Assembly (NCBI RefSeq): GCF_000299415.1
Contig: NZ_AMPG01000001.1
Span: forward strand, 62,001 to 126,000
DNA: 64,000 bases
Source: Candidatus Microthrix parvicella Bio17-1
GTDB lineage: Bacteria; Actinomycetota; Acidimicrobiia; Acidimicrobiales; Microtrichaceae
Reading direction: 5' to 3'
A program made the translations under genes and the position numbers. How positions within the stretch are numbered: the first letter of the stretch is position 1; each line of letters opens with the position of its first letter. Below the pieces are notes generated by a model. It searched no databases. It had not been told where the DNA came from and worked only from the letters and a program-made list of their open reading frames with translations. Shown here one piece after another: positions 11,150 to 27,401 of the stretch.

Positions 11150-11652
11150 GGCAACTCGACGGTCACGACGTCACGCGAGGACAGCACTGTGGCCGGGCCT
11201 CCATCGGCATCCAGCCGACGTACCGTCCGACTCACGGCAACGGCATCGACCGTGGTCGGATCGACTCCGGCGACCTTCAGGACGTCCTCAACCGCCGAGC
11301 GCTGTTCTGCGACGGGAAGCGATGCAATCTCCGGCAGTCGGCGCTGGGCGGAATCCGACACGAACGCGTTGTCGCCAAAATCGATCACCCGCCGCGTCCC
11401 TTCGGCTTCGACAACCACCAACTGCACCTGCGTTTGACGATCGGTACGAATCTGGCTGAAGAGCCGCAACGACGTCAGCGGCCACGGCTCCAGCGTGAAC
11501 ACGGCGCAGACCCCCAGCATGAGCACCATGCCATAGGCCACCAGGCGGGCCCGCCACCGCTCGCCTGCGGGCGTAAGTGTGGCTGCGGGCGTGGGTGTGG
11601 CTGCGGGCGTGGGTGTGGCTGCGGCGCTCACCTCGGGCTCACAGTTCCTCAT
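11146..11652 (-). CDS. Single-TM protein associated with the HTTM gene
   Basis: This 168-residue protein has an N-terminal Ala/Thr/Pro repeat (about residues 11-28) and one TM helix (about 36-55, LVAYGMVLMLGVCAVFTLE). A soluble domain with DVVTVELP at its end follows. The EPWPLTSLRLFSQIR stretch just after the helix resembles sequences paired with HTTM proteins. The ATG at 11652 overlaps the HD gene by 14 bp; a longer open frame runs upstream but only inside that gene. Function unknown; it probably forms a membrane unit with the HTTM protein. Confidence 0.72.
   Translation of the reverse strand: MRNCEPEVSAAATPTPAATPTPAATLTPAGERWRARLVAYGMVLMLGVCAVFTLEPWPLTSLRLFSQIRTDRQTQVQLVVVEAEGTRRVIDFGDNAFVSDSAQRRLPEIASLPVAEQRSAVEDVLKVAGVDPTTVDAVAVSRTVRRLDADGGPATVLSSRDVVTVELP
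11563..11616 (-). repeat. 18-bp tandem repeat coding for a TPTPAA-like hexapeptide
   Basis: Two perfect 18-bp copies (11581-11598, 11599-11616) and one diverged copy lie in the N-terminus of the single-TM protein. They extend a Thr/Pro/Ala linker ahead of the TM helix. Confidence 0.85.
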
Positions 11653-12274
11653 CGCATTCCGCCAGCACAGCACCTGCGCTCTGCGGCACCGTCCAACGTT
11701 CCGGTGACCAATGATGCTCACGGGCCCAGGCCGCCACCATCGGGTGGCTCCCGATCGCTTCGAGCCGCTGAGCGCCGAGTTCGGTGTAGGTGAGATACGC
11801 GCCCATGGCCACCATCGGACCGCGGCGCCGCGGCGCACCGGTCCGGTCGGTGGCCCGCCGCTCCAGCCAGTCGCCGGCGACGGTGCCCTCCGCAAGTGAC
11901 GCAACCACCCGGCCTGTCGTGCCAAGCGGGGCCAACGCCTTACCCGCGTCATGCAGCAGACCGGCCCGCACCTGCCAGCCGTCCGTCGTATCCTTGCGGG
12001 CTCCACCCCCGGCTGCATGGCCCTCACCGGCTGCATGGCCATCACCGGCTGCATGGCCCTCACCGGCTGCATGGCCCTCACCAGCCAGCACCTGCTCAAC
12101 ACGGCGGGCGACCGCCACCGAGTGCACCCGGTCGCGCACGGTCATCGAGGCGAACAGTGCCCACTCTTCGCCGTCCAGCCGTGCGGCCGCCCATCGGTCT
12201 GCCGCCGCAGGATCGGGCTCGGGCCCCACGTGATAGCGGAAACGCCGGTACAGGTGTGCCGGTGAGTCCTTCAT
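11639..12274 (-). CDS. HD-domain protein with internal GEGHAA repeats
   Basis: This 211-residue protein is a small HD-superfamily (metal-dependent phosphohydrolase-like) protein. The first His lies in RDRVHSVAVARRV, and the HD pair lies in AGLLHDAGKALAPLG. Between these conserved blocks, residues 64-88 are four-plus copies of a GEGHAA hexapeptide. They lengthen a loop that is short in relatives and bring extra histidines near the metal site. The start overlaps the Xer stop by 4 bp. Substrate unknown; nucleotide or cyclic-nucleotide hydrolysis is a family expectation, not evidence. Confidence 0.8.
   Translation of the reverse strand: MKDSPAHLYRRFRYHVGPEPDPAAADRWAAARLDGEEWALFASMTVRDRVHSVAVARRVEQVLAGEGHAAGEGHAAGDGHAAGEGHAAGGGARKDTTDGWQVRAGLLHDAGKALAPLGTTGRVVASLAEGTVAGDWLERRATDRTGAPRRRGPMVAMGAYLTYTELGAQRLEAIGSHPMVAAWAREHHWSPERWTVPQSAGAVLAECDEEL
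12011..12082 (-). repeat. 18-bp tandem repeat, 4 copies, inside the HD gene
   Basis: Four consecutive 18-bp units (12011, 12029, 12047, 12065) differ by one substitution in the second copy. They encode Gly-Glu/Asp-Gly-His-Ala-Ala on the minus strand and stay in frame. Confidence 0.92.
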
Positions 12275-15695: not shown

Positions 15696-18551
15696 CTAAC
15701 CCGAGACCGCCGGGGCCGGTTTGATCGGCGGTGAAGCGTCCTCGGGCAACCGCACTTCGGGCGCTTCAAACGGCTTGCGTACCTGCACCAGCATCAGGAA
15801 GGCGCCGATGTACACCAGTGCCAGAGCTGGGATGACGATTCCCGAATCGTTCACCGCACCGCCGAGGAATCCCACGACGAACAGTCCCATCAGCCCGGTG
15901 CGCAGATCGGTCGCACCCCGGAAACGCTCCCGCCACGTTCCGGATGTGGTCAGGCTCAGCAGCAGGAAGAACGCTGCGATCGGCACCATCCACGACCACA
16001 CGGTGAGGCGCATCACACGCAGGTTGGTGGCCACCTTTCGGCGAACGATCTCGGTGAAGCCGTCCCAGCCCCCGTTGGTCACCGTATCGAGATGGGTCCC
16101 CGACCCCAGCTTCAGAGCGACGCCCACGGCGACAGCAAAGCCCACCAGGCCGACGAGCACAGCGAGCGCCACGTTGCGTCGATTCCAAGTGATCGGTGAC
16201 CAGGCCGCCAGCAGCAACCCGAACGCCGGCACAAAAGTCAGGACGCCGCCGAAGTCGGCACCCAGCATCGGTGCCGCGTCCACGACCACCACCAGCGCAA
16301 ACATCCCGGCAACGGCAACAAACGCGGCCCGTCGATCTGTGGCGGCGTGCAACCAGGAGGCCGCCACAATGACGGCGCAGGCCCCCAACACGGCGAAGGC
16401 CATGTTGCCGAGGCCGTAGAACCGGGCTGCGGTCACCGGCGAGTAGCCCAGCAGGCTGATCTGTTGCAGCGGGGCACCGAGCGAAGCATCCACCACCATG
16501 ACCGCCAGGGTCACCCCTGCCACCGCGTTGAGAGGGCTCAAACCGAATCGTCTCGCTTGCATGGCCAGCAGGGCGGCGGCGGCGCACAGCATCGTGAGAG
16601 CCGGGATGGTGACAAACGGTCCCTGCAAGGACACCGGCATCAGTCGCCACAGAAACGTCAACACCGGAAATGCCGCCGAACCCAACGTGACCGCAACCAA
16701 CACCCCCGGCAGTTGGGAGGATCGCCCGGACCGTCGCGCCACGAGCGGGGCGATGATGTAGGCCAACGCCTGAATCACGATGAAGATGGTCACCGTCGGC
16801 GCATAGCTTCGTTCCCGCTGATCCACTCTCCGGTCGAGATCCACCAATGCCCCAATGTCGGGGGCGCCCCGCTCGATGCGCGCCACCGCTCCCCCCAGCC
16901 CCTTCGGGCGGGGACGATCCAGTCGGTTCAGCACCGTGGCGGACACGTCACCCATCGTCATGATGCCCTGACGACGGGTGGAATCCGACCCCAGGGTACC
17001 TCGGAGGCCCGGCTCGGAGAGGATCAAGGGTGAAAGGTGCCAGCGTGCGTCGTGTCCGAGGCCCAGCACAATCAGCGTGTCGGTGGGCCGCCGGTGCGCA
17101 TCGATGGCAGCCACCACCCGATCGACGTCGGACACTGCAAGCGTCGACGGGGTCAATGCGCTGCGACGGGTTTCCACCAGGATCAGGTCCGCGTCCAAGT
17201 CGACGTACCGGCGGGCCGCTGCGTCGGGGTCATCGCCCACTCCGGCGATGTCCACCGTGTCGATCGTGCCGCCGTCATCGGCCACCGCCGCCGCCCCGTT
17301 GGCCAACTGTGCCCGACCCTTGCCCGCCCAGACGTAGCCAACCCTTCCACCGTCGCGCCGGATCGAGTCGCCCAGCAGACCCCGGGTGCCGTAACTGCGG
17401 CTGTCGTCGGACACCGTCAACGGATCGATCACCTGGGCCGAACCATCCGGCAGCGCCTGCACCTTGACCGGTCCGGCTGCCGTGGCGGGGGACTCGTTGG
17501 TGAGTCCCTCAGCCTCACCAAACTCGAGATCGCCTCCAGGTACCACCAGCGCCACCGGCGCGCCGGCGCCCAAGGAGGCGTGCTGGGATGCGAGGTCACC
17601 GGGCGGAGCCGGAACCCGGGTGGACACTGAAGCGGTCGCCGACGACCGGGCCAACGACGAGATGGCCGGGGCCCGTGGGTCCTCGAGCAGGTCCATTCCG
17701 GCGCCGGCGATCGTCACCAGAATCACGCGCGGCTTTGCGCTGGGGGCGGGCAGCGCCTCGCCATGCCACCGCGTCGCCTTTCCAAGTCCGACCGACGCCA
17801 CGATGGCAACCACGCTGAGGGCCAACACCACCGCCAGGCGAAGTCGGGGTGTACCCAGCCGTGGCCACACGGTGCGGACAATGTCGATTCCCTGACGGAT
17901 TCGATGACGTCGTCCGGCCCAGCCCCGACCCGTGTGATCGTGATCCAGCGGCAGCGACACCTCGGCGAGGCGTGCCCCCGCCCGAAGCGCATCGATCGAC
18001 ATGCCCACCTCCACCCCGAACCTTGGGGCTGGGTGCAGCGAGCGCAACGTGGCACCATCGATCGCCCGTTGGCCCGACAACGGCTCGAGCACTTCGACAC
18101 CCGTGGTGCTGCGGATCGCCGCCGCCGACAGCGCCTTGATCCTCCCGGCACCGGCCTGGGTGCCGGCGGGTGGGAATCGCGCGACGACCAGTTCCTCGTC
18201 GCCGACCAGCAACCGCTCCACCAACGCCGTCAGGTGTTCGGCGGTCTCCGCCAGGTCGGCGTCGGCCAGCAAATACCATGGGGCGTCAGGGTGGGCCAGG
18301 ACCGCCTCGCCAAGGGCGGCGCCCTTTCCGCGATTCACCGGCAGCGCCAATACCTCCGCTCCCGCGGTCAATGCGCGGGCGCCGGTGTCGTCGGTGGAGC
18401 CATCGTCCACCACCACCACCCGGGTCACGCCCCGGATGCGGCGGAGGGCCGCGACGGTGGCCTCGATGCTGGGCGAATTCTTGGCGGGGACGACCGCGAT
18501 ACCGCCGACGTCCGGCTCGGTGCCCTCGTTGGGCACGTCGGAGGGGTTCAC
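15696..18551 (-). CDS. Large fusion: GT2-type glycosyltransferase + phosphatase-like domain + polytopic membrane domain
   Basis: About 951 residues in three parts. Residues 15-215 form a GT-A glycosyltransferase of the polyprenyl-phosphate sugar type (VVVVDDGSTDDTGARAL, NRGKGAAL, LLADADLAET, PLSGQRAIDG). One TM helix follows (LAVVLALSVVAIVASVGLG, about 232-250). Residues 255-560 are probably extracytoplasmic and resemble an alkaline-phosphatase-superfamily fold: VILVTIAGAGMDLL at the start, LIVLGLGHDARWHLSPLIL near the end, then a TMGDVSATVLNRL segment. The C-terminal 360 residues contain about ten TM helices. The GTG at 18551 has GAGG eight bases upstream and lies 25 bp past murJ; a TTG at 18611 is an alternative. 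Context (murJ upstream) suggests lipid-linked glycan work at the envelope; no specific function is claimed. Confidence 0.75.
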   Translation of the reverse strand: MNPSDVPNEGTEPDVGGIAVVPAKNSPSIEATVAALRRIRGVTRVVVVDDGSTDDTGARALTAGAEVLALPVNRGKGAALGEAVLAHPDAPWYLLADADLAETAEHLTALVERLLVGDEELVVARFPPAGTQAGAGRIKALSAAAIRSTTGVEVLEPLSGQRAIDGATLRSLHPAPRFGVEVGMSIDALRAGARLAEVSLPLDHDHTGRGWAGRRHRIRQGIDIVRTVWPRLGTPRLRLAVVLALSVVAIVASVGLGKATRWHGEALPAPSAKPRVILVTIAGAGMDLLEDPRAPAISSLARSSATASVSTRVPAPPGDLASQHASLGAGAPVALVVPGGDLEFGEAEGLTNESPATAAGPVKVQALPDGSAQVIDPLTVSDDSRSYGTRGLLGDSIRRDGGRVGYVWAGKGRAQLANGAAAVADDGGTIDTVDIAGVGDDPDAAARRYVDLDADLILVETRRSALTPSTLAVSDVDRVVAAIDAHRRPTDTLIVLGLGHDARWHLSPLILSEPGLRGTLGSDSTRRQGIMTMGDVSATVLNRLDRPRPKGLGGAVARIERGAPDIGALVDLDRRVDQRERSYAPTVTIFIVIQALAYIIAPLVARRSGRSSQLPGVLVAVTLGSAAFPVLTFLWRLMPVSLQGPFVTIPALTMLCAAAALLAMQARRFGLSPLNAVAGVTLAVMVVDASLGAPLQQISLLGYSPVTAARFYGLGNMAFAVLGACAVIVAASWLHAATDRRAAFVAVAGMFALVVVVDAAPMLGADFGGVLTFVPAFGLLLAAWSPITWNRRNVALAVLVGLVGFAVAVGVALKLGSGTHLDTVTNGGWDGFTEIVRRKVATNLRVMRLTVWSWMVPIAAFFLLLSLTTSGTWRERFRGATDLRTGLMGLFVVGFLGGAVNDSGIVIPALALVYIGAFLMLVQVRKPFEAPEVRLPEDASPPIKPAPAVSG

Positions 18552-18576: not shown

Positions 18577-20235
18577 TCACGCAACGGGCTCGCTGTCGGG
18601 GGCGCCACCAAAGCTACCGATCGTCGTCATCATGGCGGGACCGCCCAGTCCTCGATCGACCCCGAAAAAGGCACCCAATCCAAGCGTGCCACCAACGGCG
18701 CCGACGATCAGCGCCATCACGGCAAGATCGGTGCTCACCGTCAGCCCCAGCAGGGCTGCCGCGAGGCCCGCCGCCGCCACCGCCAGCGTTCGCCGACGCA
18801 CCCAGGAGGCCCGAAATTCAGCTCGCCCACCTAGAAGGTGACGGAGCCTGATCGCCAGGACGACCGCACCCACACCGATGGTGAGCGACCACACCAGAGC
18901 GAATGCACCCACCCGGGCGTCGCCCTCGACAGTGGCATTGACCACGTAGAAGCCCGCGACGGCCGCCACGGCCACCACGACCGCCACCAGGGCCGGGGTG
19001 CGCGCATCGGAGGTGGCGTAGCTGATGCGCACCAGCGTCATCCACAGCGCATAGGCAGGCACCCCAACGGCAAACCCGGCTACAGCTGCGGTCACCGCCG
19101 CCGTCGAATCTGCCGCGGCACCAATCGACACGGCCTGGGCGACCTGCGGGGAGAGTGCAGCCAGTAGTGCTCCGGCCAAGGCACCGGTGGTCAACACCGA
19201 CCGAACCGACGCGCCCGACAGCTCGGCGAATGAGCGGGTATCGGTTTGCTGAAACGCAGTTGCGAGCGCCGGCAGGCGGGTGGTGTAGATGGGAGAAGCC
19301 AACAACGCATGGGGCAGAAGCAGAATCTGCCAGGTGAGGATCCATACCTGGGTGTGGCCGTCAACGGCGTTGGTCAACGGCAATACCGCCAGCATCGGCA
19401 ACTGTGCCGCCCCGAGGAACAGCACCGCCCACCACACGGCACGCCCCAGCGAACGCAGTTGCCCGGATCGAGGCGGCAGCGGTCGACCCAGCGGCGCGGC
19501 GTGGTTGAACGCGTCCAGGAGGGGCACGGCGGCCATGGCCACGACACCGGCTGTGAACCCCCCGCCGATCACCAACTTCTCGGTGCCGCTCAGGGGCAGC
19601 GAGACGTCGCCGCCTCGCATGATCGCCAGCGCACCAAGCGTGATGGACACCACCACGTTGTTGACCAGCGGGCACACGGCCCCCGCCCAGAACCGGTTGC
19701 GGGCGTTCAGCAGCGCTACAGCCACCCCGTTGGCCAGGTAGGCGAAAACCTGAGGAAGAAACCACCAGAGCAGGTAGGTCCCCAAGAGCTGGGCTTGGCG
19801 CCGATCCTCAACCGGTACGTTGCCCAACAGGTAGTCGGTCACCTGGCCCCGGGCGAGCAGCGCCACGGCCACCACGACGGCCAGTACGGCCCCGAGGTAG
19901 AACATCACCGTGCCGGCCAGGCGGGACCGGAACGCGTCGACCGGCCCGGCAAAGCGCCGCTCCTCGTCGACGAGCATGGGGATGAACACCGCGCCGAGAG
20001 CGCCCGCTGCCAACAGTTCAAAGAGCAGGGTGGGCACCAGGTTGGCGCTTTGCACCACGTTGCCGAGCTGGGTACTGGTACCCAAAACCGCGAACCCGGC
20101 CAGCATGCGAACAAAGCCGGTGGCGCGGCTGGCCGCCACCAACAGGGAAAAGCGGGCCGCCTCGCCGTCCGAAGCCCTTGCCACAGGAGGCGAATCAGCC
20201 GACGGCGTCGCCTGTCGCGGTCGGCCTTGGATCAT
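18577..20235 (-). CDS. murJ: Lipid II flippase MurJ (MviN)
   Basis: The 552-residue MATE-like flippase moves lipid II across the membrane. The family N-terminal segment SLLVAASRATGFVRMLAGFA, the GALGAVFIPML helix, LLNARNRFWAGAVCPLVNN and about fourteen hydrophobic segments support the call. It lacks the pseudokinase extension found on mycobacterial MviN. It overlaps the MctB-like gene by 4 bp. Confidence 0.92.
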   Translation of the reverse strand: MIQGRPRQATPSADSPPVARASDGEAARFSLLVAASRATGFVRMLAGFAVLGTSTQLGNVVQSANLVPTLLFELLAAGALGAVFIPMLVDEERRFAGPVDAFRSRLAGTVMFYLGAVLAVVVAVALLARGQVTDYLLGNVPVEDRRQAQLLGTYLLWWFLPQVFAYLANGVAVALLNARNRFWAGAVCPLVNNVVVSITLGALAIMRGGDVSLPLSGTEKLVIGGGFTAGVVAMAAVPLLDAFNHAAPLGRPLPPRSGQLRSLGRAVWWAVLFLGAAQLPMLAVLPLTNAVDGHTQVWILTWQILLLPHALLASPIYTTRLPALATAFQQTDTRSFAELSGASVRSVLTTGALAGALLAALSPQVAQAVSIGAAADSTAAVTAAVAGFAVGVPAYALWMTLVRISYATSDARTPALVAVVVAVAAVAGFYVVNATVEGDARVGAFALVWSLTIGVGAVVLAIRLRHLLGGRAEFRASWVRRRTLAVAAAGLAAALLGLTVSTDLAVMALIVGAVGGTLGLGAFFGVDRGLGGPAMMTTIGSFGGAPDSEPVA

Positions 20236-21335
20236 CCGCCAACCTCAGGCAGCACCGAGTCGACCCCCTTGGCCATCCCGTAGTTGCCTGTCTTTCCTTC
20301 GGCCAACTCCATCAAGGCTGCGACGGCAGCAACCTTTCCAAGGGGCGTCTCCAGCCCGTCCAGTGTCGACACCTGCCCTGCCAGCGCCGTCAGGTCCCGC
20401 GCCGCTTCGAGCGACGCACCACGGGCGGCGACATCCTCGTCGGTGGCCAGCTCGGCCAACGATCTGGTGGTCCGGGTCTCAGCCAACAGGACGCGCCCCG
20501 GGCTGGTCGCCGCCAGCGCGGTTGCCACCGGCACAAACGCCTCCTTTGGCTTCAGCACACTGCCCTCACCCGTGATGTACATGATCAGGGCCTCGGGTGC
20601 CGGCGCCGACAGATTGCCCGCAGGCGCCGCCTCAGGTTCGATCAGGTCTGCCTTCGCCAACGCCGCAAGCACGTCTTCGGGCTCGGGGGGCAGCGTCGTC
20701 GTGGTGGCGCTCGATGACGGCGTCGGGGTTGTTGACGGGGGCGCGGCCGTCGGCTCGCCAGGAGCGGCGCCACCACCGGTGGTCGTGGCGGTTGTCGTGG
20801 CGGTCGTCGCCGTGGGGTTTGTGGCGCGGGTCGGGCCGGCAAGGGCGGTGGCCAACAGGTCCGCCGCTGCCACGGTCACCTGCTGGGGGTCGTCCGCTCC
20901 AACCAGCCCCAACGAGTCGGCAATCTCGACGCTCGTCTTGGGGTCGGCCGGATTCCAACGATCGGTCAGCCACAGCACGGCGGGAATCTCCGCCCCCGCC
21001 GCTTGAAGAACCGCAACGGTGCGCGCCACCTGGTCGCTGTCCACCCCGCGGTTGGCCAGTATCACCACCTCGCTGCCGGAAAGCCGACCGGCCAACAAAC
21101 GCTCGAGGTGCGCCGGTTGAATCGCAGCCTCGCTCAGGGTCTGCTCATCGAGTACCTCGGTCAGCGACTTCACCTCGGCTGTGCGGTCCTCAAGTCGTCC
21201 GTTGAGGCTCTTCACCTGGGCATCGAGCGCATCCACGAAGGTGCGGTCGAGGAAGGTTGATCCCAGCATCAGGCCGATGCCCAACGCCAGGAAGACAGCC
21301 GTCAGGCTGATGATGTGGGTTCGCAGCTTGATCAC
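20232..21335 (-). CDS. mctB: MctB/CopT-like envelope protein (DUF3186, Rv1698 type)
   Basis: The 367-residue protein has an N-terminal signal-anchor (IISLTAVFLALGIGLMLGS, residues 8-26), a coiled-coil stretch (about 35-70) and the conserved core LSGSEVVILANRGVDSDQV. A long Thr/Ala/Pro low-complexity insert sits at about 170-215. The family includes the mycobacterial outer-membrane-associated protein linked to copper export. Its place after steA and before murJ matches other actinobacteria. It overlaps steA by 4 bp. A copper role here is by homology only. Confidence 0.85.
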   Translation of the reverse strand: MIKLRTHIISLTAVFLALGIGLMLGSTFLDRTFVDALDAQVKSLNGRLEDRTAEVKSLTEVLDEQTLSEAAIQPAHLERLLAGRLSGSEVVILANRGVDSDQVARTVAVLQAAGAEIPAVLWLTDRWNPADPKTSVEIADSLGLVGADDPQQVTVAAADLLATALAGPTRATNPTATTATTTATTTGGGAAPGEPTAAPPSTTPTPSSSATTTTLPPEPEDVLAALAKADLIEPEAAPAGNLSAPAPEALIMYITGEGSVLKPKEAFVPVATALAATSPGRVLLAETRTTRSLAELATDEDVAARGASLEAARDLTALAGQVSTLDGLETPLGKVAAVAALMELAEGKTGNYGMAKGVDSVLPEVGG

Positions 21336-25972: not shown

Positions 25973-26344
25973 CTACGCGCTCGGCGCCGAATCACCCGTT
26001 GAGGGAGCCTTCTTGGCGGGAGCCTTCTTGGCAGGAGCCTTCTTGGCAGGAGCCTTCTTGGCAGGAGCCTTCTTGGCAGGAGCCTTCTTGGCAGGAGCCT
26101 TCTTGGCGGGCACCTCGAGCGGCTCAGCCACCAGGTCGCCCACCATGGGCAACTTCTCCAGGCGGGGCTTCAGCGACTCGGCCAACGGCTGGATGCGCTC
26201 CACCGCTTCGTTTGCGGTTTCCAGGACGGAATCGGAAATGCGTTCCGGCGCCTGACGCAATGCCTCCCCCACCTGCTCGAGGTAGTCCTTCAGGGTCTCG
26301 GTTGCTTTACGCGCAGCGTCGGTCAGTTTGTTCAAGTCGGTCAT
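25973..26344 (-). CDS. Helical protein with histone-like AKKAP repeat tail (phasin-like)
   Basis: This 123-residue protein has an N-terminal half predicted to be amphipathic helix ([40 protein letters not shown]) and a C-terminal tail of seven AKKAP pentapeptides. Such tails occur on histone-H1-like DNA-binding proteins and on PHA-granule phasins; the helical front favours a phasin-like or lipid-surface protein, but I cannot decide. The ATG at 26344 follows the fbaB stop by one base, so the two are co-translated. Confidence 0.75.
26004..26108 (-). repeat. 15-bp tandem repeat, 7 copies (AKKAP)
   Basis: Seven 15-bp units run without a break from 26004 to 26108; the first two and last vary at one base. 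They code for the Lys/Ala/Pro tail. Confidence 0.95.
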
Positions 26345-26345
26345 G

Positions 26346-27401
26346 TCAAGCCACCGTGATGGAGTCGTCGAGGTATACGTCTTGGATGGCGTTAAGCAGT
26401 TCAACGCCCTCGGCCATGGGGCGTTGGAACGCCTTGCGACCCGAAATGAGCCCGGTACCACCGGCTCGCTTGTTGATCACCGCAGTGCGCACGGCCTCCG
26501 CAAGGTCGGTTGCGCCGGAGGACGCTCCGCCCGAGTTGATCAGGCCGATACGGCCCATGTAGCAGTTGGCCACCTGCCAGCGGCACAGGTCGATCGGATG
26601 GTCCGTCGTCAGCTCGTCGTAGACAAGGTCGTGGGTCTTTCCGAGGCCCGGGATGGCCTTGAAACCACCATTGTTCTCGGGAAGCTTCTGCTTGATGATG
26701 TCTGCACCGATGGTCACACCGATGTGATTGGCCTGCCCCGTCAGATCGGCAGCGGCGTGATAGTCGACGCCGTCCACCTTGAAGTCGTTGTTGCGCAGGT
26801 AGCACCACAGCACCGTGAACATGCCCAGCTGGTGTGCCTCTTCGAATGCGTCGGCCACCTCCTGGATCTGCCGGCGAGACTCCTCCGAACCGAAGTAGAT
26901 CGTGGCTCCCACACCTGCGGCGCCCAGGTCGTAGGCCTGTTGAACCGAGCCGAACATGATCTGATCAAACGTGTTGGGGTAGGTCAGCAGCTCATTGTGG
27001 TTCAGCTTTGCGATGAAAGGAATCCGGTGCGCATGGCTGCGGCTGGCCATGCCCAAAACGCCAAACGTGGTCGCCACGGCGTTACAGCCGCCTTCGATCG
27101 CCAAGTCCACAATCTTCAACGGATCGAAGTAATCGATGTTGGGGGCGAAGCTCGCTGCGCCTGAGTGCTCGATGCCCTGATCAACCGGCAGGATCGACAC
27201 GTAGCCCGACCCACCGAGGCGTCCGTGGTTGTAGAGACCTGCCAGGCTCCGCAACACCTGCGGGGACCGATCTGAGTTCATCATGGACCGCTCGATGAAG
27301 TCGGGTCCTGGCAGCGTCAGACGCTCCTTGGGGATGGCAGTGGCCTCGTAATCCAGCAGTGCCTGTGCGTCATCGCCCAACAGGTTTGAAATAGCAACCA
27401 A
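26346..27401 (-). CDS. fbaB: Class I fructose-bisphosphate aldolase (FbaB/DhnA type)
   Basis: The 351-residue aldolase works in glycolysis/gluconeogenesis by Schiff-base chemistry. Recognised blocks are [50 protein letters not shown] and [14 protein letters not shown] with SGRKAFQRP near the end. The start is a TTG at 27401 preceded by AAGGAG six bases away, a strong site for a weak codon; no better start precedes the conserved core. Most actinobacteria use class II Fba, so this type is notable but not rare. Confidence 0.93.

What the first reader, a model, noticed from the sequence alone, without database searches (positions are those of the whole stretch)
15696..18551. Three-part envelope enzyme: glycosyltransferase, phosphatase-like domain and ten-helix membrane domain
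A single chain joins a cytoplasmic GT2 domain with intact DDGS and DAD motifs, an extracytoplasmic domain with alkaline-phosphatase-superfamily flavour, and a polytopic C-terminus. It sits right after murJ. One protein could load a sugar on a lipid carrier, move it and process it on the far side.
Basis: partly seen in the sequence, partly recalled or inferred. Interest (0 to 1): 0.6.

Follow-up and report, generated by a model that had tools for sequence, protein, structure and literature searches.

The report
Glycosyltransferase, dead phosphatase, glycan-polymerase-like fusion
A single bacterial membrane protein joins a sugar-adding enzyme, an outside domain shaped like a phosphatase but apparently without its active site, and a membrane part that looks like a distant relative of the enzymes that build cell-surface sugar chains; it sits beside cell-division genes and suggests an undescribed envelope-sugar pathway.

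Summary
The ORF is real, on the minus strand (15696-18551, GTG, 951 aa), and not an assembly join: in-frame GT2+AP-like+membrane chains occur in 15 of 80 named loci, and the fused rows form one clade (SH-aLRT 99). GT2 is intact. The middle domain has the alkaline-phosphatase-superfamily fold (iPGM Z 21.8, NPP Z 20.7), but its metal ligands and nucleophile are lost across the family: a pseudophosphatase. The C-terminal part has 11 membrane segments, not ten, and matches no Pfam family or PDB sequence. Its profile scores 42.9 against O-antigen ligase/Wzy (nulls at most 25.5; Wzy-SEDS 49.4), and the seven structural rows with Z over 8 are all WaaL, RodA or FtsW, though Z stays under 10. The AP+membrane pair is the constant core (89 of 89 hits in one frame), found in at least 112 of 296 genomes of the phylum and in a clostridium. 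Of 31 loci spanning steAB to pyrG, 31 hold a MraY/WecA-like gene and 26 a MurJ-like gene; the window's 'MurJ' is a divergent second copy. Best reading: an outer-face lipid-linked glycan polymerase or ligase with a built-in glycosyltransferase and a non-catalytic outer module. No biochemistry is tested.

The parts
15696..18551 (-). Three-part protein, 951 aa, GTG start; stop TAG at 15696-15698
17856..18551 (-). Residues 1-232: cytoplasmic GT-A (GT2) domain; best structural match GpgS (Z 24), also DPMS, ArnC, GtrB; NCBIfam best AglJ (far below its cut-off)
18396..18407 (-). DDGS motif, residues 49-52
   Evidence: D49, D50 and S52 in 35 of 35 rows, G51 in 34
18255..18263 (-). DAD motif, residues 97-99
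   Evidence: D97 and D99 in 35 of 35 rows
17775..17849 (-). Residues 235-259: linker transmembrane helix
16869..17744 (-). Residues 270-561: extracytoplasmic pseudophosphatase, alkaline-phosphatase-superfamily fold without conserved metal ligands
17706..17708 (-). Residue 282 (Ala): place of the lost beta-1 metal-binding Asp
15780..16856 (-). Residues 566-924: membrane domain, 11 membrane segments, O-antigen ligase/Wzy-like (GT-CB-like)
16404..16424 (-). Motif RFxGxGN, residues 710-716, predicted outer-face loop; aligns with the Wzy 'R..G...PN' region
   Evidence: 18 of 18; R710, G713, N716 in 84 of 84
16245..16262 (-). Motif GxDxGG, residues 764-769, predicted outer face; Asn in place of Asp in L027, L033 and the clostridial homologue. 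The 80 named loci were picked by this motif, so its conservation in them is by selection
16092..16094 (-). Invariant His 820, predicted outer face
   Evidence: 18 of 18; 84 of 84
16035..16040 (-). Arg-Lys 838-839 on a long helix (820-849) predicted on the outer side
   Evidence: R 80, K 83 of 84
15840..15851 (-). NDSG motif, residues 901-904, predicted outer-face loop
   Evidence: 18 of 18; N, D and G 84 of 84, S 83
18577..20235 (-). MurJ-like (MOP superfamily) protein, divergent second copy
20232..21335 (-). steB (mctB) homologue
   Evidence: PF11382
21332..22549 (-). steA homologue
   Evidence: NF040608, 497.6 bits
13887..15656 (-). pyrG (CTP synthase); its likely ATG is 39 bp after the target's stop; fixed end of the conserved slot, not a functional part

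Best explanation
The constant core of the family (pseudophosphatase + membrane domain) is a distant member of the GT-CB superfamily and works like a Wzy/WaaL-type enzyme: on the outer face of the cytoplasmic membrane it polymerises, or transfers to an acceptor, a glycan carried on undecaprenyl diphosphate. The carrier-linked sugar is started by the MraY/WecA-like protein (linked in relatives, unlinked in this genome), extended in the cytoplasm by a glycosyltransferase (here the fused GT2 domain; in others a separate GT4 or GT2 gene), flipped by the MurJ-like protein, and used by the membrane domain. The AP-fold domain has lost catalysis and most likely binds the acceptor or growing chain, or couples the enzyme to partners, as the PBP partner does for SEDS proteins. 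Shown here: architecture, GT-A and AP folds, loss of metal ligands, conserved polar residues on predicted outer loops, gene linkage, profile similarity to Wzy/O-antigen ligases. Inferred: donor, acceptor, chemistry, role of the AP domain, any link with SteAB.
For: Profile-profile: membrane domain against a Wzy_C/O-antigen-ligase profile 42.85 (E 1e-4); positive control Wzy-SEDS 49.4; the other 26 forward pairs at most 25.2, reversed at most 25.5, 60 block shuffles mean 17.0, sd 2.6, max 23.3. Structure: the seven VIA rows with Z over 8 are WaaL (7tpg Z 9.8, rmsd 5.7, 264 residues), RodA (6bar Z 9.5) and FtsW (8p1u Z 8.9), from three proteins; the eighth, E. coli RodA, is at 7.7. R710, N716, H820, R838 and N901-G904 are invariant in the 18 rows picked by overall similarity, and R710, N716, H820, N901, D902 in 84 of 84, on predicted outer loops. 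Order and spacing R710-56-D766-72-R838-64-D902 recall RodA R101-58-D159-51-R210-52-D262 (residues from PMC10449877, passages; the pairing is mine). Linkage: MraY/WecA-like in 31 of 31 and MurJ-like in 26 of 31 loci that span steAB to pyrG; glycosyltransferase fused, adjacent or close by in 48 of 84 rows. AP fold without ligands.
Against: hhalign probability is only 57% over 89 columns; the SEDS profile is not above null (24.65 against a shuffle maximum of 25.3); Foldseek best E 0.11. Z 9.8 is under the 13 that the tool advises for helical bundles, and the eighth row (7.7) ties with a designed helical barrel (7.5). Pfam Wzy_C matches 1 of 84 members, at E 0.013. The 80 named loci were found by a pattern that demands GxDxGG, so D766 in 84 of 84 is by selection; it is Asn in L027, L033 and a clostridial homologue and cannot be essential everywhere. 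The loop with R838/K839 is rich in basic residues (4.7 K/R against 3.7 D/E), against the positive-inside rule if outside. The MraY/WecA-like family is weak in Pfam (PF00953 at or below the cut-off) and unlinked in this genome. In 24 of 84 rows neither of my two glycosyltransferase models was found beside the target. GT87 neighbours in L085 and L100 would also fit an Und-P-sugar pathway.
Confidence: 0.55

Rival explanations
1. The membrane domain is a GT-CA-type glycosyltransferase that uses polyprenyl-phosphate-sugar made by the fused GT2 domain, as Ppm/DPMS-type synthases feed GT-C mannosyltransferases (the pairing is recalled).
For: NCBIfam best matches of the GT2 domain are AglJ (1.9e-17) and the polyprenyl-phospho-GalNAc synthase PpgS (5.2e-14), all far below cut-off, with GpgS third (1.8e-13); ArnC, GtrB and DPMS are among the structure matches; GT87 genes lie beside the pair in L085 (both sides, the second only just over its cut-off) and L100 (one tested); AftA is third in the Foldseek list, E 0.14.
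Against: The membrane profile does not match GT87 above null (24.4); the rows with Z over 8 are GT-CB; MraY/WecA-like and MurJ-like neighbours point to a diphosphate carrier.
Confidence: 0.16
2. One reading: the chain loads a sugar on a carrier, flips it and dephosphorylates or transfers phosphate on the far side (LtaS/EptA/PIG-N-like active AP domain).
For: AP domain followed by a polytopic domain (the PIG-N layout is recalled, not tested); AP fold clear.
Against: Beta-1 Asp absent in 71 of 73 rows, nucleophile and Asp-His pair not conserved; the clostridial homologue also lacks the beta-1 Asp by eye.
Confidence: 0.07
3. The AP+membrane core is a non-enzymatic scaffold, sensor or lipid-carrier transporter for the SteAB/RipA division machinery.
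For: SteA in 35 of 80 loci; SteAB regulates RipA (PMC12977500, section 10 and passages); AP domain apparently inactive.
Against: Invariant polar residues on predicted outer loops and similarity to glycan polymerases/ligases; also occurs with no SteA hit in the held stretch in the 15 Actinomadura-group loci and in a clostridial stretch.
Confidence: 0.17

Closest known systems
O-antigen ligase WaaL (GT121) and Wzy-type polysaccharide polymerases
   Same: Profile similarity above all nulls, top structural row 7tpg, invariant outer-face Arg and His, lipid-PP-like pathway neighbours
   Different: Only distant similarity; not recognised by Pfam Wzy_C; joined to a pseudophosphatase and, in one clade, a GT2
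SEDS polymerases RodA/FtsW (GT119) with their PBP partners
   Same: Similar arrangement by VIA-align (Z 7.7-9.5), MurJ-family neighbour and an extracytoplasmic module
   Different: Profile score to SEDS not above null; the outer module is an AP-fold pseudoenzyme in the same chain
iPGM / NPP / sulfatase (alkaline-phosphatase superfamily)
   Same: Fold (Z about 21) and C-terminal D-x-[AP]-P-T-x-L signature
   Different: Metal ligands and nucleophile lost
GpgS / DPMS / AglJ GT2 enzymes
   Same: GT-A fold, DDGS and DAD motifs
   Different: Fused through a TM helix to the other two parts; acceptor unknown
GPI ethanolamine-phosphate transferases (PIG-N type; layout recalled, not tested)
   Same: AP-fold domain followed by a polytopic membrane domain
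   Different: Those are active metalloenzymes (recalled); here the ligands are absent

Membership tests
GT2 (PF00535) | Score above the curated cut-off; intact DDGS and DxD motifs | tested here: met
   49.4 against 23.3 bits; D49, D50, D97, D99 in 35 of 35
Alkaline-phosphatase superfamily | Fold | tested here: met
   1ejj Z 21.8 rmsd 2.7 over 225 residues; 7mw8 Z 20.7 rmsd 3.6 over 239; HMM against PDB iPGM E 2.1e-5
Alkaline-phosphatase superfamily (active enzyme) | Metal-binding Asp/His set and Ser/Thr nucleophile | tested here: not met
   Position 282 Pro 67, Asp 2 of 73; no conserved Asp-His pair; nucleophile position about 320 Pro/Leu/Ala in 57, Thr/Ser in 11 of 74
GT-CB (WaaL/Wzy/SEDS) superfamily | Profile similarity beyond chance to a member family | tested here: met
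   Wzy_C profile 42.85 against nulls at most 25.5; positive control 49.4
GT-CB (WaaL/Wzy/SEDS) superfamily | Three-dimensional fold | tested here: inconclusive
   Seven VIA rows over Z 8 are WaaL/RodA/FtsW, best 9.8, under the 13 advised for helical bundles; Foldseek E 0.11
GT-CB (WaaL/Wzy/SEDS) superfamily | Uses a lipid-diphosphate-linked sugar donor | not testable with these tools
   Only neighbours point to it: MraY/WecA-like gene in 31 of 31 loci spanning steAB to pyrG
Pfam Wzy_C (PF04932) | Members recognised by the family model | tested here: not met
   1 of 84 members, E 0.013; window none
SEDS (PF01098, GT119) | Profile similarity to SEDS | tested here: not met
   24.65, within the shuffle maximum 25.3
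MurJ (TIGR01695), the neighbour | NCBIfam equivalog cut-off | tested here: not met
   118 against 236 bits; PF03023 met, 123 against 27
PNPT / MraY-WecA (PF00953), the linked gene of relatives | Pfam cut-off (27 bits) | tested here: inconclusive
   L026 27.7 (met), L041 18.3, own-genome homologue 20.6, L087 no match; DD, NLxD and GD motifs in 40 of 40 rows

The most novel reading that the evidence does not exclude
An undescribed and widespread envelope-glycan assembly pathway of Actinomycetota, with relatives in Clostridia: its outer-face polymerase is a previously unclassified GT-CB family permanently joined to a pseudophosphatase module, in one acidimicrobial clade also to its cytoplasmic glycosyltransferase, and it is encoded in the steAB division locus, implying glycan synthesis coupled to cell separation.
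Probability: 0.38. Interest if true: 0.8.

Novelty: new variant of a known kind. Interest (0 to 1): 0.6.

Why it matters
It gives a concrete candidate function to a membrane family that no Pfam model (84 members scanned) or PDB sequence covers, and that at least 112 of 296 sampled genomes of the phylum carry. If right, these actinobacteria have an additional lipid-linked glycan route, with its own MurJ-like flippase, MraY/WecA-like starter and polymerase, placed beside the SteAB cell-separation regulators, and the SEDS-plus-partner idea has an analogue built from a dead phosphatase. It makes testable what the second 'murJ' of this block flips.

Tried and rejected
Assembly join: rejected, recurrent in independent genomes. 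Active phosphatase: rejected on ligands. Ten helices: replaced by 11 plus a linker. The neighbouring murJ as the lipid II flippase: a better MurJ exists elsewhere in the genome. Single-sequence scan of genome contigs found no relative; the alignment scan did. PDB sequence search with the membrane profile: no hit. SEDS and GT87 profiles: not above null. A comparison of membrane and AP profiles gave 33.5 over 22 columns, which I put down to the stretch that the two cut-outs share at their border; it was left out of the nulls. NPP-based ligand mapping: hhalign scores modest (33.7 and 36.2; 6 and 9 sequences), but both alignments and the PDB HMM show the same sites lost. Literature (for the GT-CB background): the listings show no description of this protein or pathway; listings were capped (20 of 46 papers, 12 of 103), no separate bioRxiv collection is held and most subscription journals are missing.

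Rows dropped and biases: the 80 loci are the best 80 of 202 that the scan confirmed, all picked by one pattern around the GxDxGG motif. A2 left out L082 (near copy of L081/L086) and four rows with AP coverage under 0.3; A3 used 42 of the 74 AP references plus the window; A1 used 17 of the 20 loci plus the window; A4 left out ORFs whose membrane BLAST score was 80 bits or less. The Wzy and SEDS profiles used the 30 loci returned each, the GT87 profile 19 of the 30, the NPP profiles 15 of the 30. L044 counts as fused in the tree, but its GT2 lies in another frame with a piece missing; one search counts 16 in-frame GT2 hits in 15 loci (L044 and window not among them), one search counts 17 fused rows (window and L044 included, the cut second copy of L071 not in that tree). 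Some contigs are held twice (for example L025/L055, L028/L049, L029/L051, L032/L064, L035/L077, L041/L122), once as a G genome and once named; counts over the 80 named loci are not affected, the 35 GT2 rows and 40 PNPT rows are. Counts are lower bounds, as at most 10 and 6 candidates per genome were scored.
Full report
Observation. The ORF lies on the minus strand of the window, 15696-18551, GTG start 25 bases after the stop of the MurJ-like gene and 39 bases before the likely ATG of pyrG. It has no internal stop over 951 residues. Pfam sees only GT2 over its cut-off, at residues 20-128; NCBIfam nothing above cut-off; the genome holds no second full copy, only two partial GT2 matches.

Not a join. 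Of 40 relatives, 18 genomes were opened in 20 stretches; nine have the same three-part order (one cut by a contig end), including G003 and G026, which are single-contig genomes, while others have only the AP+membrane part in the same slot. A scan of named genomes gave 80 loci. There, 89 of 89 membrane-domain hits share a stop-to-stop frame with an AP hit, and 16 GT2 hits in 15 loci share that frame too. In a quick tree of 84 membrane domains the 17 fused rows plus two rows cut by contig ends form one group (SH-aLRT 99; one change if the rows of unknown state are left out, three if they count as not fused); the window branches off first within it as drawn, on a long branch. A single fusion is the simplest reading; the tree is unrooted.

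Glycosyltransferase. D49, D50, D97, D99, the GQR at 160-162 and H204 are in 35 of 35 rows, fused and separate. Closest structures are GpgS (Z 24), then MpgS and DPMS; ArnC and GtrB appear in Foldseek. Donor and acceptor are unknown.

Middle domain. AlphaFold (79 rows, pLDDT 87.5, pTM 0.89) gives an AP-superfamily fold: iPGM 1ejj Z 21.8, NPP 7mw8 Z 20.7. A 43-row profile finds iPGM at E 2.1e-5 and NPP at 2.1e-4 in the PDB; 10 of 43 members touch SGSH_C, 2 Sulfatase, 2 Phosphodiest in Pfam at E 0.01 or better, the window none. Ligands are lost: the NPP 'DG' Asp position is Pro in 67 and Asp in 2 of 73 rows; the nucleophile position (about 320) is Pro, Leu or Ala in 57 of 74 and Thr or Ser in 11; the DH pair falls on 498-500, where no Asp-His pair is conserved (Asp 22 and His 8 of 79 at position 500 alone). 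His505 is present in 28 of 79 and may be a remnant.

Membrane domain. Family hydropathy shows 11 main segments after the AP domain and one before. The short loops that fall on the cytoplasmic side hold more basic residues than most of the short outer ones, so both termini are placed inside and the AP domain outside; the long outer loop 812-850, with 4.7 K/R on average, does not fit that rule. Alone (84 rows) the domain folds at pLDDT 90.0, pTM 0.91. No Pfam family, no PDB sequence. VIA-align: seven rows over Z 8 (9.8-8.6), all WaaL, RodA or FtsW and from three proteins; the eighth, E. coli RodA (7.7), ties with a designed barrel (7.5); GPCRs follow at 6.9 and below. Foldseek alone is not significant. 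Profile comparison: Wzy_C family 42.85 (E 1e-4, 57%), positive control Wzy-SEDS 49.4, the other 26 forward pairs at most 25.2, reversed at most 25.5, 60 shuffles at most 23.3; SEDS 24.65 and GT87 24.4 are not above null. The Wzy alignment puts RFxGxGN on the Wzy R..G...PN region; the sub-threshold SEDS alignment picks the same stretch, which is suggestive only.

Conservation, with its bias. R710, N716, H820, R838, N901, D902, S903 and G904 are invariant in the 18 rows of A1, which were found by overall similarity; D766 is there in 90% or more. In the 84 rows of A4, R710, N716, H820, N901 and D902 are in 84, R838 in 80, K839 in 83. D766 and its glycines are also in 84 of 84 (G769 83), but the scan pattern demanded them; D766 is Asn in L027, L033 and the clostridial homologue. 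RodA's R101, W102, D159, R210 and catalytic D262 are from PMC10449877 (passages); the GT-CB, GT119 and GT121 classes and their lipid-PP donors from PMC10920833 (abstract, outline and passages).

Context. In the 31 of 80 loci that hold pyrG and steA or steB, a MraY/WecA-like gene is present in 31 (21 after the target, 10 before it) and a MurJ-like gene in 26. The MraY/WecA-like family is only borderline in Pfam (27.7, 18.3 and 20.6 bits against 27; one member none), but DD, NLxD and GD motifs are in 40 of 40 rows, with Pro where MraY has a second Asp (recalled). In the window it is not in place; a homologue lies elsewhere in the genome (41% over 199 residues; L126). Beside the target, of 84 rows: GT2 fused 17, GT4-type gene just upstream 16, GT2 on the opposite strand 15, neither found 24, unknown 12; no fused locus shows a GT4 hit upstream. 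In L085 a GT87 gene lies on each side of the pair (the second just over its cut-off), in L100 one was tested. SteA/SteB: PMC12977500 (section 10 and passages) describes SteAB as regulator of RipA, present unevenly through Actinobacteria and in some Clostridia; its section 10 names no such neighbour and its main text has no occurrence of MurJ.

Distribution. At least 112 of 296 genomes of the phylum (E 1e-6 or better) and 55 of 198 of the class (E 1e-10 or better). A 727-residue open frame of Acetoanaerobium noterae has both AP (E 3e-40) and membrane (E 7e-49) parts; its record is titled a plasmid but is 2.6 Mb.

Mechanism and verdict. The evidence for a relation to O-antigen ligase/Wzy is good but not decisive, and everything about substrate is inference. 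I commit to an outer-face glycan polymerase or ligase acting on an undecaprenyl-PP-linked sugar, with the pseudophosphatase as non-catalytic binding or coupling module and the GT2 as built-in supplier. Novel as a combination; the parts are known kinds.

Noticed in passing
L058 7678-13080: One open frame of 1,800 aa reads AP-membrane-GT2-AP-membrane: a tandem fusion of a two-part and a three-part copy. Second copies or pieces also in L050, L055, L060, L067, L071, L076, L088.
   Followed up: partly
L044 7238-8065: GT2 part in a different frame from AP+membrane, with part of its end missing: decayed gene or assembly error.
   Followed up: partly
plasmid records NZ_CP149721 and 11 others: A hypothetical membrane protein on Clostridioides difficile plasmids of about 97-150 kb matches the membrane domain at 25% (E about 1e-4).
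   Followed up: no
L249 7624-9804: Clostridial two-part homologue downstream of a gene that looks like alaS (by eye), with no steAB hit in the stretch and GANVGG instead of GxDVGG.
   Followed up: partly
window 25973-26461, minus strand: Small protein with a KKAPA-type lysine/alanine/proline repeat tail.
   Followed up: no
window 11639-12274, minus strand: ORF with a GHAAGEGHAAGDGHAAG repeat.
   Followed up: no
L073, L081, L086: MAGs titled Bifidobacterium breve group with acidimicrobial-type loci: L081 and L086 with IMCC26207, L073 with L070 and L095; probably mislabelled records.
   Followed up: no
G026 C1:3627118 and G003 C1:3875276: Genomes with both a three-part and a two-part copy. In G026 the three-part copy sits in a RecN-MurJ-pyrG block without steA or steB hits; in G003 the two-part copy holds the steAB-pyrG slot and the three-part copy lies elsewhere.
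   Followed up: partly
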